Positions 20,510 to 56,340 of a stretch of 64,000 nt of DNA are shown piece after piece (the first letter of the stretch is position 1; each line of letters begins with the position of its first letter). Under the pieces are notes generated by a model that made no database searches, was not told the origin of the DNA, and was given only the letters and a program-made list of their open reading frames with translations. The stretch covers positions 558,001 through 622,000 of the forward strand of contig LR632930.1 of NCBI GenBank assembly GCA_902167325.1. The letters run 5' to 3'. Made by a program: the position numbers and the translations under genes. This DNA comes from Chitinophaga pinensis. Lineage in GTDB: Bacteria; Bacteroidota; Bacteroidia; Chitinophagales; Chitinophagaceae.

Positions 20510-20567
20510 AGGCATTTTCAACTTTTATACCGGCCTGGTATTATGACCGTTTCCCCGGAGGAGGCTA

Positions 20568-20684
20568 CTGACATCCTGCTGACATCCTTCAGTGATCCTT
20601 CAGTGGTGTTCAGTGGTGGTATAGGTTTGAGGGTGTTTGACTGAAGGATCACTGAAGGATCACTGAAGGTTCGCTGAAGGTTTA
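20568..20684. repeat. 11-bp-period array A, arranged as an inverted pair
   Basis: Left half 20568-20611: successive 11-mers CTGACATCCTG, CTGACATCCTT, CAGTGATCCTT, CAGTGGTGTTC. Right half 20641-20684: CTGAAGGATCA twice, then CTGAAGGTTCG and CTGAAGGTTTA. A 19-bp segment at 20586-20604 is perfectly complementary to 20640-20658, so the two halves form a long hairpin around a 35-nt centre. It lies between the divergent mfd and reductase genes. Confidence 0.85.
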
Positions 20685-21560: not shown

Positions 21561-21637
21561 CTATATGTACCCTATTCTTTCCGCCTGCAAGACTGCCTTT
21601 ACCTTCCTGCTACCCTCCAGGATGAAGGTGATATTAC

Positions 21638-21757
21638 TAACCTATAACCCAGGTATGAAACTTATATAAGCTACCTATAAGCTACCCCTTATATAGGGTA
21701 GCTTATAGGTAAGTTATAGGTGGGTTATAGGTAGCTTATAGGTAACTTATATCCATA
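21638..21757. repeat. 11-bp-period array B, arranged as an inverted pair
   Basis: Right half: TTATAGGTAAG, TTATAGGTGGG, TTATAGGTAGC, TTATAGGTAAC and TTATATCCATA at exactly 21703, 21714, 21725, 21736 and 21747. Left half holds complementary units such as AAGCTACCTAT. Segments 21665-21687 and 21696-21718 are complementary at 21 of 23 positions around an 8-nt loop. The array lies between two convergent genes. Confidence 0.88.
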
Positions 21758-21880
21758 TTATCCCTTAGTTGACATTGCTTCAACATGCTATCTAGCAGCT
21801 GGTTAGCACGGGATACGCGGAATTTTGTCCCAGAATGGGCGGGGAGGGGTAAAAGTGCGCATTTCGAAGGGTATAGGCAC

Positions 21881-49425: not shown

Positions 49426-49470
49426 TATCATATCACAACACAATCATTATCAACTACATGTACGGATCAA

Positions 49471-49605
49471 GTCCACATCATGTCCACCTTTCCTCCACCT
49501 TCTATCCGGGTTTTGTATTAAGTTCTCCCGTAGTTGTCGCGTAGATGCACCATAGATGCGTCGATGTAACTAACTTGTAACCTACTTGTAATCGCATGAT
49601 GGGCT
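49471..49605. repeat. 11-bp-period array C
   Basis: Left block GTCCACATCAT (49471), GTCCACCTTTC (49482), CTCCACCTTCT (49493), ATCCGGGTTTT (49504); right block CGTAGTTGTCG (49529), CGTAGATGCAC (49540), CATAGATGCGT (49551), CGATGTAACTA (49562), ACTTGTAACCT (49573), ACTTGTAATCG (49584). All adjacent units step by exactly 11 bases. It lies between convergent mscS and the thioredoxin-like gene. Confidence 0.82.
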
Positions 49606-52120: not shown

Positions 52121-54733
52121 ATGACCGCAGCCCAGATCAGGCAACAGTTCCTGGATTTTTTCGCCTCCAAAGGGCACCACATCGTGCCTTCCGCGCCGAT
52201 AGTTCTGAAAAACGACCCTACCCTGCTGTTCACCAACGCAGGCATGAACCAGTTTAAAGACATTTTTCTCGGCAACAAGCCGGCGAACTGGCCCCGCGTG
52301 GCCGACACCCAGAAATGCCTCCGTGTTAGCGGCAAGCATAACGACCTGGAAGAAGTAGGGATCGACACCTACCACCACACCATGTTCGAAATGCTCGGAA
52401 ACTGGAGCTTCGGGGATTATTTTAAGGAAGATGCCATCGCCTGGAGCTGGGAACTGCTCACAGAAGTATACAAGCTCCCGAAAGACCGCCTGTATGTTAC
52501 CGTTTTTGAAGGGGATGCCTCCGAGAACCTACAGGCCGATACCGAAGCCTTCGAATTCTGGAAGCGCCACATTGCGGAAGATCGTATCCTCATGGGTAAC
52601 AAGAAGGATAACTTCTGGGAAATGGGCGAAACCGGTCCCTGCGGACCCTGTACCGAAATTCACGTAGACTGCAGGACAGAAGCCGAAAGAGCTGCCGTTC
52701 CCGGGAAAGACCTCGTGAACAACGACCACCCGCAGGTGATCGAGATCTGGAACAACGTATTCATGCAGTTTAACCGCATGAAAGACCGCTCCCTCGTGCC
52801 TCTGCCTGCCAAACACGTTGATACCGGTATGGGCTTCGAACGGCTGGTACGTGTGATCCAGGGCAAACAGAGCAACTACGACACCGATGTGTTCATGCCC
52901 CTCATCCATGCTACGGAAGCGCTTTGTGGCAAAAAATACGGTCAGACCGAAAAAACCGACATCGCTTTCCGCGTGATCGCTGATCATATCCGCGCTATCT
53001 GCTTCACCATTGCAGATGGACAACTGCCCTCCAACACCGGCTCCGGCTATGTGATCCGCCGCATCCTCCGCAGAGCTGTCCGTTACTATTTCTCTTTCCT
53101 CGACTTCAAACAACCCCTCCTGCACGACCTCGTGCCGAAGCTGGCTGAAGAATTCCGCGAGGTATTCCCTGAGCTGGCCGGGCAGCTCGACTTCGTAAAG
53201 AAAGTGGTGTTTGAAGAAGAAAACAGCTTCCTTCGCACGCTGGAAAGCGGTTTGGGACGACTGGAAACCATCACTTCCGGAGCATCCAAAACCATCGAAG
53301 GACCTGTGGCTTTTGAACTGTACGATACCTACGGCTTCCCGCTCGACCTCACCATGCTCATCGCCTCCGAAAAAGGGTTCAGCGTGGATGAAGAAGGATT
53401 CAAGACCGAACTGAATAAACAAAAAGACCGTTCCCGCGCAGCCACCAAGCTCGATATGGGCGACTGGACCCTGCTCAGCGAACAGCCTTCCGGCATTTTC
53501 ATTGGTTATACCGAACTGGCAGCCGATGCCAAAGTGCTGAAATACCGTTCCATCTCCGCCAAAGGCAAAGATCAATTCCAGATCGTGCTGGACAAAACGC
53601 CTTTCTATGCCGAATCCGGCGGACAGGTGGGCGATACCGGAACCCTCTATTTTGGATCAGAAGCCATCTCGGTAACCGATACCAAAAAGGAAAACGACCT
53701 CATTGTGCATTTCACTGACCAGCTGCCTTCCAATCCGGAAGCTCCCGTGAAAGCTGAGGTAGACGTTATCAAACGCCAGGATATTGCCCGTCACCACTCC
53801 GCCACGCACCTGCTGCATGCTGCCCTCCGTCAAACGCTGGGTACACACGTGGCGCAGAAAGGCTCCCTGGTGAACGCTGACTACCTGCGCTTCGACTTCT
53901 CGCACTTCTCAAAGGTGACTGATGAAGAGCTGGCGGCTATTGAAACCATCGTGAACCAGAAGATCCGCGAGAACATTCCGGTGATCATCCGGGAAATGCC
54001 CCGCGATGCTGCCATGGAACTTGGCGCTATGGCCCTTTTCGGCGAGAAATACGGCGAAACCGTTCGCGTGGTAACCATCGACCCCAACTATTCCGTTGAG
54101 CTTTGCGGTGGTACCCACATCGGCCACACCGGTGAGCTGGGTATTTTCAAATTCCTGTCCGAAGGCGCGGTAGCTGCCGGTGTAAGGAGGATTGAAGCCG
54201 TAACCGGCGCCAAAGCAGAAGCATACATCAATGAGCAGATTGCCCAGCTGAAAGAGGTAAAGGCCGCCGTTAAAAACCCTAAAGAACCTGCTAAAGCCGT
54301 GGAAACGCTCGTGGCTGAAAAGTCTGCTCTGGAAAAGCAACTGGCCGCCCTCGAACTGAAACAGGCGCAGGCTGCTGCTGCCACATTACCCCGGCAAGCT
54401 GTTGCCGTAAATGGTGTACAGTTCCTCGGAACAGTGGTAGACGCTTCCAGCGCTGATACCGTTAAGCAATATGCAATTGCGTTGAAAGACCTCCTTACCG
54501 CCCCTTACCTCGTGGTGCTTTGCGCTAATGCAGGCGGGAAAGCACAGGTGGCAGTCCTCATTTCCGACGATCTCGTGAAAGACAAGGGCCTCAATGCACA
54601 GAAAATCATCAAAGAACAAATTGCCGGCCTCATTAAGGGCGGCGGTGGCGGCCAGCCTACCCTCGCATCCGCAGGCGGGCAGGATACCAGCCAGTTCGCT
54701 ACGGTGATCGAGAAAGTGAAAAGCATCCTCTAA
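52121..54733 (+). CDS. alaS: Alanyl-tRNA synthetase
   Basis: 870 residues. AlaRS charges tRNA-Ala and edits Ser/Gly mischarging. Catalytic domain at the N-terminus (FFASKGHHIVPSAP, TLLFTNAGMNQFKDIFLG), editing domain with HHSATHLLHAAL and CGGTHIGHTGEL as zinc ligands, then the C-Ala domain with GGGGGQPTLASAGGQ. Length fits the family. A terminator begins 4 nt after the stop. Confidence 0.98.
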   Translation: MTAAQIRQQFLDFFASKGHHIVPSAPIVLKNDPTLLFTNAGMNQFKDIFLGNKPANWPRVADTQKCLRVSGKHNDLEEVGIDTYHHTMFEMLGNWSFGDYFKEDAIAWSWELLTEVYKLPKDRLYVTVFEGDASENLQADTEAFEFWKRHIAEDRILMGNKKDNFWEMGETGPCGPCTEIHVDCRTEAERAAVPGKDLVNNDHPQVIEIWNNVFMQFNRMKDRSLVPLPAKHVDTGMGFERLVRVIQGKQSNYDTDVFMPLIHATEALCGKKYGQTEKTDIAFRVIADHIRAICFTIADGQLPSNTGSGYVIRRILRRAVRYYFSFLDFKQPLLHDLVPKLAEEFREVFPELAGQLDFVKKVVFEEENSFLRTLESGLGRLETITSGASKTIEGPVAFELYDTYGFPLDLTMLIASEKGFSVDEEGFKTELNKQKDRSRAATKLDMGDWTLLSEQPSGIFIGYTELAADAKVLKYRSISAKGKDQFQIVLDKTPFYAESGGQVGDTGTLYFGSEAISVTDTKKENDLIVHFTDQLPSNPEAPVKAEVDVIKRQDIARHHSATHLLHAALRQTLGTHVAQKGSLVNADYLRFDFSHFSKVTDEELAAIETIVNQKIRENIPVIIREMPRDAAMELGAMALFGEKYGETVRVVTIDPNYSVELCGGTHIGHTGELGIFKFLSEGAVAAGVRRIEAVTGAKAEAYINEQIAQLKEVKAAVKNPKEPAKAVETLVAEKSALEKQLAALELKQAQAAAATLPRQAVAVNGVQFLGTVVDASSADTVKQYAIALKDLLTAPYLVVLCANAGGKAQVAVLISDDLVKDKGLNAQKIIKEQIAGLIKGGGGGQPTLASAGGQDTSQFATVIEKVKSIL

Positions 54734-54737
54734 ATAG

Positions 54738-54763
54738 AAAGGCTCCTCCGGGAGCCTTTTTTT
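54738..54763 (+). terminator. alaS terminator
   Basis: Perfect 9-bp stem AAAGGCTCC/GGAGCCTTT with a 4-nt loop, followed by TTTTTTT. Confidence 0.9.
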
Positions 54764-54804
54764 ATGCAGCCAACCCTTAAATGCTGATGAGGAAATGGTT
54801 AATT

Positions 54805-54914
54805 CCTGCCTTTAGACTACGTGGCCACTGCCTCCGGACTGCCTTGTTACTGCCTTTAGACTTCTGTTACACTAAGGGTAGACTGCCTCTACACTGCCTT
54901 ACACAGCCTTTAGA
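54805..54914. repeat. 11-bp-period array D
   Basis: Ten 11-mers in exact register from 54805 to 54904. The core ACTGCCT occurs at 54827, 54838, 54849, 54882 and 54893; intermediate units (54816, 54860, 54871) begin with ACT and diverge after it. A phase shift of 11 rules out a reading frame. It lies between alaS and the PDZ gene, on no obvious stem. Confidence 0.88.
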
Positions 54915-55374: not shown

Positions 55375-56340
55375 ATGCGTAAACTCCTCTTTTCCGGCAG
55401 CTCTCTTCTCCTCGCTTTTACCCTGGCCTCGTCCGCGGTATCCGCACAGGACAGGCGGATCGGTAAAATGGGAGAGTATGATGAGATCATCATCAAACGC
55501 AAAGGCGATTCGCAAAATGCGAAAGTAACCGTTGAGATTAAAGACGGGGAAGTACTCGTGGATGGTAAGCCGATCAGGGAATTCAAAGGGGAAAACATCA
55601 CCGTGAAGCAACGTATTGTTACGCCACGTAATGGTAATTTCCCTGACGATCATCCGGAAATAGCTTTTGAAGATGCAATCAAACCCGGGCCTGCGGTACT
55701 TGGCGTAATTACCGAGAAAGCCACTGCCGAAGGAGCCACCGTTACGGAAGTAGCCGAAGGCAGCGCCGCAGCAAAAGCAGGACTTAAAGCGGGTGATGTG
55801 ATTACAAAAGTAAACGACACAAAGATCAGTGAGCCGCAGGATCTGTTTGAAACAATCGGCAAGCTTCAACCCGGAGAAGAAGTAACCATTACTTATCTCC
55901 GCGATAAAAAAGAGCAAAAATCAAAAGCGAAACTTCAACCGCGCGATAGTGCGGAAGATGTCATGAAAGGCCGCCGCTACCGCAGCCCGCGCCTGCTCGA
56001 TGAAGAGCCTCGCGCTTTCACGATGCCCCGCAGCTTCGACGAGCTTTTCAATCCTAACGCCCAACCCAAACTGGGCCTTCAGGTACAGGACCGTGAAGAG
56101 AACGACGGAGCTACCGTGCAAACCGTTGAATCCGGTTCAGCAGCGGAAAAAGCCGGCTTTAAAACCGGGGATGTTATTCAAAACGTTGATAGCCAGTCCG
56201 TCAAAAATGCCCGCGATGTATCCGCCGGATACCGTGAAGCGAAAGACAAAACCACCATCAGTTTCGGTATCCTCCGCAATGGAAAATCCGAAACACTGAC
56301 GGTAAAAGTGCCGCGTAAGCTGCGCTCCGAAAACCTGTAA
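55375..56340 (+). CDS. Secreted double-PDZ protein
   Basis: 321 residues with a signal peptide (SLLLAFTLASSAVSA). Two PDZ domains are clear: residues ~105-185 with AEGSAAAKAGLKAGDVITKVN and ~230-305 with ESGSAAEKAGFKTGDVIQNVD. There is no protease domain, so it is a peptide-binding adaptor, not a DegP-like protease. A charged, unstructured segment connects them. Terminator follows. Partner unknown. Confidence 0.88.
   Translation: MRKLLFSGSSLLLAFTLASSAVSAQDRRIGKMGEYDEIIIKRKGDSQNAKVTVEIKDGEVLVDGKPIREFKGENITVKQRIVTPRNGNFPDDHPEIAFEDAIKPGPAVLGVITEKATAEGATVTEVAEGSAAAKAGLKAGDVITKVNDTKISEPQDLFETIGKLQPGEEVTITYLRDKKEQKSKAKLQPRDSAEDVMKGRRYRSPRLLDEEPRAFTMPRSFDELFNPNAQPKLGLQVQDREENDGATVQTVESGSAAEKAGFKTGDVIQNVDSQSVKNARDVSAGYREAKDKTTISFGILRNGKSETLTVKVPRKLRSENL

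What the first reader, a model, noticed from the sequence alone, without database searches (positions are those of the whole stretch)
54805..54914. Exact 11-bp-period array without a coding or known repeat explanation (array D)
Ten consecutive 11-mers keep perfect register from 54805; the core ACTGCCT occurs in five of them (54827, 54838, 54849, 54882, 54893), with diverged units between. Three other intergenic regions (arrays A, B, C below) repeat unrelated sequences with the same 11-bp step. Shared period without shared sequence suggests a process or a protein that imposes the period, e.g. an array-growing mechanism or a DNA-binding filament contacting one helical turn per unit. 11 is not a multiple of 3 and the arrays are short, so coding, CRISPR and ordinary satellites do not fit. 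I know of no described element like this.
Basis: seen in the sequence. Interest (0 to 1): 0.75.

Follow-up and report, generated by a model that had tools for sequence, protein, structure and literature searches.

The report
Dispersed 11-base repeat arrays between genes
The array is one of many copies of a repeat family scattered between genes, all built of 11-base steps although the families differ in sequence; it resembles known short tandem repeats, but the fixed 11-base step and a mobile element that lands on the arrays in the sister species are unusual.

Summary
Array D (54801-54914) holds ten in-register 11-mers: lag-11 score 22.6, reached by 0 of 2000 dinucleotide shuffles.

Array D is not a singleton. 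It is one of 18 matches in this genome, also multicopy in a sister species, G205. The window's other arrays belong to other families, matched in 11, 8 and 22 of 79 genus genomes. Arrays found fill about 4% of intergenic DNA and are rare between divergent genes. Units resemble neighbours more than distant units. Orthologous arrays differ by whole units in two clean cases.

In G205 an IS-like element has 11 of 11 long right-end matches within 44 bp of such arrays; 15 other contig ends have none. Eight insertions in family D fall within one base of one unit phase.

Best reading: largely neutral, REP- or minisatellite-like dispersed arrays grown by local duplication with a lineage-typical 11-nt step, and used as landing sites. 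What sets 11 is unknown.

The parts
54801..54914 (+). Array D: 4-bp lead (AATT here, GATT in most copies) and ten 11-bp units, consensus ACTGCCTNNNN; one of 18 matches in this genome
54764..55279 (.). Extra intergenic DNA that holds array D; absent from the orthologous gap of the nearest named relative (own 612763-613280 against about 0 bp in L086)
52121..54733 (+). Upstream gene, alanyl-tRNA synthetase
   Evidence: PF01411, E 7.2e-199
54740..54765 (+). Terminator-like hairpin and T run after alaS, before the array; read by eye, not listed by the scan
55375..56340 (+). Downstream gene, protein with PDZ domains
20565..20682 (+). Array of another family (ATCCTTCAGTG / CACTGAAGGAT, inverted halves, strong hairpin); 20 matches at E 1e-10 or better in own genome, matches in 11 of 79 genus genomes
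21632..21808 (+). Array of another family (TATAAGCTACC / GGTAGCTTATA, inverted halves); matches in 8 of 79 genus genomes
49457..49593 (+). Composite array (CAAGTCCACAT ... CGTAGATGCAC ... TAACTTGTAAC); mostly short matches in 22 of 79 genus genomes; one 11-bp unit longer in G205

Best explanation
Array D is a copy of a dispersed, non-coding repeat element of ten 11-bp units. The genome holds many such arrays, in sequence families unrelated at the level tested, while arrays of other steps are rare in it. Most likely they are largely neutral, minisatellite- or REP-like DNA. New units arise by local duplication of a neighbouring 11-mer, probably a replication or repair slip whose step is set by a contact length of the machinery in this lineage; units then drift, and whole arrays are copied to other gaps by recombination or mobile DNA. 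They are kept where they do little harm, mostly next to gene 3' ends, and serve as landing sites for an IS-like element in the sister species. Shown: family, copy number, period, location, neighbour similarity, unit-step length change in two cases, IS association and its unit phase. Inferred: the slip mechanism, neutrality, the copying route, and what fixes the step at 11.
For: 18 matches in own genome, the window copy and 17 others at 73-91% identity; 15 own copies align over 118 columns with no gap, mean column identity 86%. Lag 11 dominates the intergenic DNA sampled in own genome and in syntenic G205 (24 segments, against 0-3 at lags 7-25 other than 22). 53 arrays in 1.642 Mb cover 6176 bp, against 153,894 intergenic bp; 47 of 196 gaps of 250 bp or more hold one; 4 of 52 placed arrays lie between divergent genes, against 59 of those 196 gaps. 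Identity of units falls from 0.615 at one step to 0.307 at eight, off-phase 0.25-0.26 (26 arrays of 99 bp or more; steps 1 and 2 are inflated by how arrays were picked). Two clean length changes, of one and three units, between orthologs. Arrays diverge faster than other intergenic DNA (67.5% aligned at 80.5% identity, against 88% at 89.6%). In L086 no lag-11 segment was found, and the two gaps that hold arrays here are about 517 and 229 bp shorter there.
Against: Neutral slippage alone does not explain one step length in many unrelated seeds. D copies keep register and unit-specific letters, and 47 of 118 columns are invariant in 15 copies. A post hoc split finds unit positions 1, 2, 5 and 6 changing less than the rest (8.2% against 15.2%, p 0.003). 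Eight of nine D ortholog pairs compared by alignment show no length change inside the units (the pair of L012 was rearranged and left out), so growth is not fast. Many other array gaps align poorly, and some length differences there are not multiples of 11. No copying route or target duplication of D itself was found.
Confidence: 0.5

Rival explanations
1. Protein-binding arrays: one subunit per helical turn binds direct repeats of 11 bp, as the partition protein ParR on plasmid R1 parC or OmpR/PhoB-type regulators on their boxes (both recalled). The families would be sites of different proteins or of one protein that reads spacing.
For: Seven-base core and four-base spacer in D; register kept in dispersed copies; IS insertions keep unit phase in D, which would fit a bound target.
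Against: Core and spacer change at the same rate between orthologs; arrays evolve faster than other intergenic DNA; they are rare in divergent promoter gaps; no motif shared by the families was seen; periods 7 and 10 in relatives.
Confidence: 0.2
2. The arrays belong to mobile DNA: each family is a MITE- or REP-like element, like BrickBuilt of Porphyromonas gingivalis, moved by a transposase in trans, and the IS-like element of G205 is tied to that system.
For: Dispersed copies of fixed length and left border GATTCC; 11 of 11 long IS right-end matches at arrays; a related IS end in G247 stops 15 bp before an array match.
Against: No terminal inverted repeats were seen at the borders of D; D arrays exist in own genome, where that IS end gave no match at E 0.01; own orthologs of seven hit D loci carry D without the IS.
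Confidence: 0.2
3. Termination arrays: C-rich, G-poor RNA with C residues every 11 nt that loads Rho downstream of genes.
For: Arrays are rare in divergent gaps and lie 48 bp or more from gene 3' ends; 23 of 34 arrays between co-directional genes have C over G on the sense strand (p 0.035); the upstream gene is co-oriented for 13 of 17 D copies and for the window copy.
Against: Gaps without arrays (79 of 141) and the non-array rest of array gaps (22 of 33) show a similar lean (Mann-Whitney p 0.07 and 0.61); a terminator-like hairpin already precedes array D; no conserved RNA structure in 15 copies of D.
Confidence: 0.1

Closest known systems
Long simple sequence repeats of 5-11-nt units and heptamer intergenic arrays of cyanobacteria, Beggiatoaceae and some Bacteroidetes (PMC4679880 and PMC4060949, passages of both)
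   Same: Short-unit tandem arrays, often intergenic, sporadic between species; PMC4679880 reports a proposal (of Mrazek et al. 2007, not held) that the unit length may be what contacts the polymerase, and shorter gaps without obvious repeats in close relatives
   Different: Heptamers are the commonest category there; here 11 nt with drifting units, many families in one genome, whole arrays dispersed, and an IS landing on them
BrickBuilt, MITE with a 23-bp minisatellite in Porphyromonas gingivalis (PMC4596501, abstract and passages)
   Same: Bacteroidota; dispersed intergenic element (19 copies in one strain) made of tandem units
   Different: Unit of 23 nt, with leader, tail and terminal inverted repeats like those of IS5-family elements; none seen in D
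REP/BIME elements and IS that target them (recalled)
   Same: Multicopy intergenic elements, some families palindromic, used as IS targets
   Different: Built of 11-bp tandem units; D itself does not fold better than shuffles

Membership tests
Short-unit tandem repeat arrays (LSSR / STRR type) | Head-to-tail copies of a unit of 5-11 nt, longer than chance | tested here: met
   unit 11, 0 of 2000 shuffles; but only 54 of 99 lag-11 matches, so degenerate
Short-unit tandem repeat arrays (LSSR / STRR type) | Mainly intergenic | tested here: met
   49 intergenic, 4 coding segments
Short-unit tandem repeat arrays (LSSR / STRR type) | Heptamer unit (STRR proper, recalled) | tested here: not met
   lag 7 gives 4 intergenic segments, lag 11 gives 49
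BrickBuilt / MITE | Multicopy, dispersed, non-coding, intergenic | tested here: met
BrickBuilt / MITE | Terminal inverted repeats shared with an IS | tested here: not met
   none seen at the borders of D; the G205 IS ends differ from D
BrickBuilt / MITE | Target-site duplication | tested here: inconclusive
   the empty site in L086 lies in a T run and the insert is larger than D
REP / BIME | Palindromic unit, multicopy, extragenic | tested here: not met
   D z-score -0.94; two other families of the window do fold (z -6.55, -3.25)
CRISPR | Identical repeats of about 20-45 nt with unrelated spacers of similar size (recalled) | tested here: not met
   11-nt units without spacers
Binding-site arrays (ParR-parC, OmpR/PhoB type) | Cognate protein binds the units | not testable with these tools
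   needs binding assays
Binding-site arrays (ParR-parC, OmpR/PhoB type) | Core positions more conserved than spacers | tested here: inconclusive
   core 66 of 532, spacer 40 of 306, p 0.83; post hoc positions 1, 2, 5, 6 lower, p 0.003
Rho utilisation sites | C over G on the transcribed strand beyond background | tested here: inconclusive
   23 of 34, p 0.035, but not different from controls

The most novel reading that the evidence does not exclude
A group of Chitinophaga has a sequence-independent process with an 11-nt ruler that grows arrays from unrelated seeds, while relatives use other rulers (7 or 10), and a transposable element has evolved to read array register, landing polar and in unit phase, so that arrays act as safe landing strips.
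Probability: 0.3. Interest if true: 0.8.

Novelty: new variant of a known kind. Interest (0 to 1): 0.6.

Why it matters
Why short tandem repeats in bacteria have preferred unit lengths is an open question; a genome where many unrelated arrays share one step, with a close syntenic relative and with relatives that show other steps, makes it testable. If an IS really reads the register, the arrays are also a new kind of landing site. In the sister genome, contigs end at the IS copies that sit on these arrays.

Tried and rejected
Replichore polarity: strands of the 18 D copies looked sorted along the map, but GC skew of the sampled parts changes sign near 0.9 Mb and 4.0-4.1 Mb, and the sorting does not follow the two replichores so defined; dropped. 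A primase-primer ruler of about 11 nt (recalled) stays an idea without test. Rho arrays: see rivals. RNA element: no conserved pairs in 15 copies; Rfam gave 4 matches, all below gathering scores. D in plasmids or phages: no match at E 1e-5. Genus sampling: 5 genus genomes, 40 kb each, gave 0 lag-11 segments, which misled until searches showed matches to the window's other array families in 11, 8 and 22 of 79 genus genomes, two of the five sampled genomes among them. In 80 alaS loci of other genomes lag 11 has no overall excess (11 segments at threshold 12, against 49 at lag 7 and 2-29 at the other lags from 8 to 33); at threshold 20, low-complexity stretches removed, it gives 5 against 15 at lag 7, 6 at lag 14 and at most 5 elsewhere. 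Homogenisation test was biased by picking arrays in one genome; not used. Literature: ten searches; no listed title or abstract start, and no passage I read, describes 11-bp arrays in Chitinophaga; the library is open-access only.

Full report
OBSERVATION. Ten 11-mers in register run from 54805 to 54914, with ACTGCCT at the five places named. 54 of 99 positions match at lag 11, so the array is periodic but degenerate. The lag-11 score of the gap, 22.6, is reached by 0 of 2000 dinucleotide shuffles; 0 of 300 shuffles reach it at any lag from 5 to 40. Tandem Repeats Finder sees it as a 22-bp and a 10-bp array.

I took 1.2 Mb of the 6.28 Mb chromosome and the window. With an ORF mask (ORFs of 300 nt or more), intergenic 44-bp windows with at least 27 matches number 1275 at lag 11, 714 at 22 and 218 at 33; all other lags from 5 to 40 give 0-32. 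By segments, lag 11 gives 49 intergenic and 4 coding; lag 22 gives 41 and 5, lag 33 18 and 27; other lags from 7 to 34 give 0-10 intergenic. The excess is intergenic and specific to 11 and its multiples. In 80 alaS loci of other genomes there is no such overall excess.

WHAT ARRAY D IS. The array is one of 18 matches in this genome. The copies share a lead GATT and ten units with unit-specific letters, aligned (29 copies: 18 own, 11 G205) and, for 15 own copies, without a gap over 118 columns. Three own copies (L022, L024, L025) are shifted or diverged and were left out. Family D was found in 3 of 79 genus genomes, the own one included and one of them by a single 27-base match, and in 1 of 195 family genomes, the own one. 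In the nearest named relative, L086 (uncultured Chitinophaga), the alaS-PDZ gap lacks D and about 515 bp around it; the gap of the 49457 array is 94 bp there against 323 bp here.

OTHER FAMILIES. In 1.642 Mb without overlap there are 53 arrays, 6176 bp, against 153,894 intergenic bp, in 50 gaps; one array could not be placed in a gap. Arrays were picked by lags 11 and 22, so arrays of other steps are not in this count; one search shows they are few. Single-linkage BLAST grouping gives 18 groups, sizes 16, 9, 7, 5, 2, 2 and twelve singles; the group of 16 joins composite arrays in a chain, and some singles are AT-rich and may be weak. 13 of 53 have inverted halves. The window's other arrays have matches in 11, 8 and 22 of 79 genus genomes, own included; for the third family most matches are short (about 24-60 bases).

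POSITION AND EVOLUTION. Arrays are rare in divergent gaps (4 of 52, against 59 of 196 gaps of 250 bp or more) and stay 48 bp or more from gene 3' ends. Unit identity falls with distance: 0.615, 0.532, 0.457, 0.410, 0.351, 0.332, 0.326, 0.307 over 1-8 units, off-phase 0.25-0.26. G205 is syntenic over 400 kb, at 77-93% identity per block, mostly 88-93%. There, arrays align over 67.5% of their length at 80.5% identity, other intergenic DNA 88% at 89.6%, coding 98.2% at 91.2%. Clean unit changes: one unit more in G205 at own 607389-607708 (aligned as 10 and 1 bases; gaps of 1 and 3 bases lie beyond the array) and 33 bases, three units, more in the ortholog of the D copy at 3404273 (aligned as 30 and 3). 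Eight of nine D ortholog pairs compared show no length change inside the units. Many other array gaps align too poorly to count units, and some length differences there are not multiples of 11. Between D orthologs, 66 of 532 core and 40 of 306 spacer positions differ (8 pairs).

THE IS-LIKE ELEMENT. Four G205 contigs begin with the same ~124 bases directly before different D copies. Searching that end found 11 long matches in G205 and none in own, G270 or G271; a twelfth, 34-base match was left out of the count. All 11 right ends have an array starting within 0-44 bp: eight family D, two TAATCGGCCTG, one TTACAATACGG. Four led me to the element; seven did not. Left ends do not share this: 3 of 9 have an array segment within 300 bp, at 1, 5 and 115 bp. 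Fifteen other contig ends of G205 have none within 300 bp; not all of these are shown to be IS ends or intergenic. In own genome 308 of 2456 sampled positions in gaps of 250 bp or more lie within 60 bp of an array, so 11 of 11 has p about 1e-10 under random landing in such gaps, 7 of 7 about 5e-7 (the 60-bp limit was set after the distances were seen). Survival of insertions only in harmless DNA could add to the pattern. In the eight D insertions the unit phase is 2 in six, 1 and 3 in the others. Flank pairs read by eye suggest a 3-bp target duplication (TCC twice, TTG once where own orthologs fix the pairing); one such pair shows none and one is rearranged. In another species, G247, a weak match to the same end stops at 1729786 and an array match starts at 1729801; the other seven matches outside G205 have no match of the four tested families beside them in the lists, which are capped. 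The 12th G205 match (C12:27413-27446) also lies 44 bp before an array match at C12:27490. The inside of the element could not be read.

MECHANISM. The best reading is neutral growth by local duplication with a lineage-typical step, spread of whole arrays, tolerance next to gene 3' ends and use as landing sites. A proposal, reported in PMC4679880 (passages) from work that is not held, ties heptamer repeats to a polymerase contact length. Period 7 in other Bacteroidota loci (15 segments in 80 loci) and a period 10 array in C. eiseniae fit a lineage-set step better than a helical turn. None of this is shown directly.

KNOWN OR NEW. The kind (short-unit intergenic arrays; dispersed tandem-unit elements) is known; PMC4060949 (passages) reports strong excess of 6-11-bp tandem repeats in intergenic DNA of a few archaea, and PMC4596501 (abstract and passages) describes BrickBuilt. 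The many-family, one-step, drifting form and the IS association are what I did not find in the ten literature searches, of which I saw listings and, for three papers, passages.

Noticed in passing
L103:20317, L135:15018 and 20722, L090:4433 and others: Drifting intergenic arrays with period 7 in other Bacteroidota loci (15 segments of score 20 or more in 80 loci).
   Followed up: partly
L088:3804-3933: 130-bp intergenic array with period 10 in Chitinophaga eiseniae.
   Followed up: no
L291:10194, L292:3583: Two viral contigs share 11-bp drifting arrays (CCTACTGCCTA) flanked by GTGCTTG and GTAAGCACC, perhaps a replication origin.
   Followed up: no
G000:C1 before 21944, 70671, 205770, 3249723, 3369228: Five paralogous proteins (254-260 aa; one called as 352 aa) each followed at about 140 bp by an array of the CCGCATCACCTCC kind; the one tested has no Pfam match.
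   Followed up: partly
L009, L010, L015, L022, L025, left of D: Clusters of TTTTGGCCG-like words just upstream of several D copies, with irregular spacing.
   Followed up: no
G230:C1:4288294, 628175, 274473, 2520794, 2051136, 1894416: The CACTGAAGGAT hairpin element comes in tandem pairs at six places in this genome.
   Followed up: no
G000:C1 near 0.9 and 4.0-4.1 Mb: GC skew of the sampled parts changes sign there, a guess at origin and terminus.
   Followed up: no
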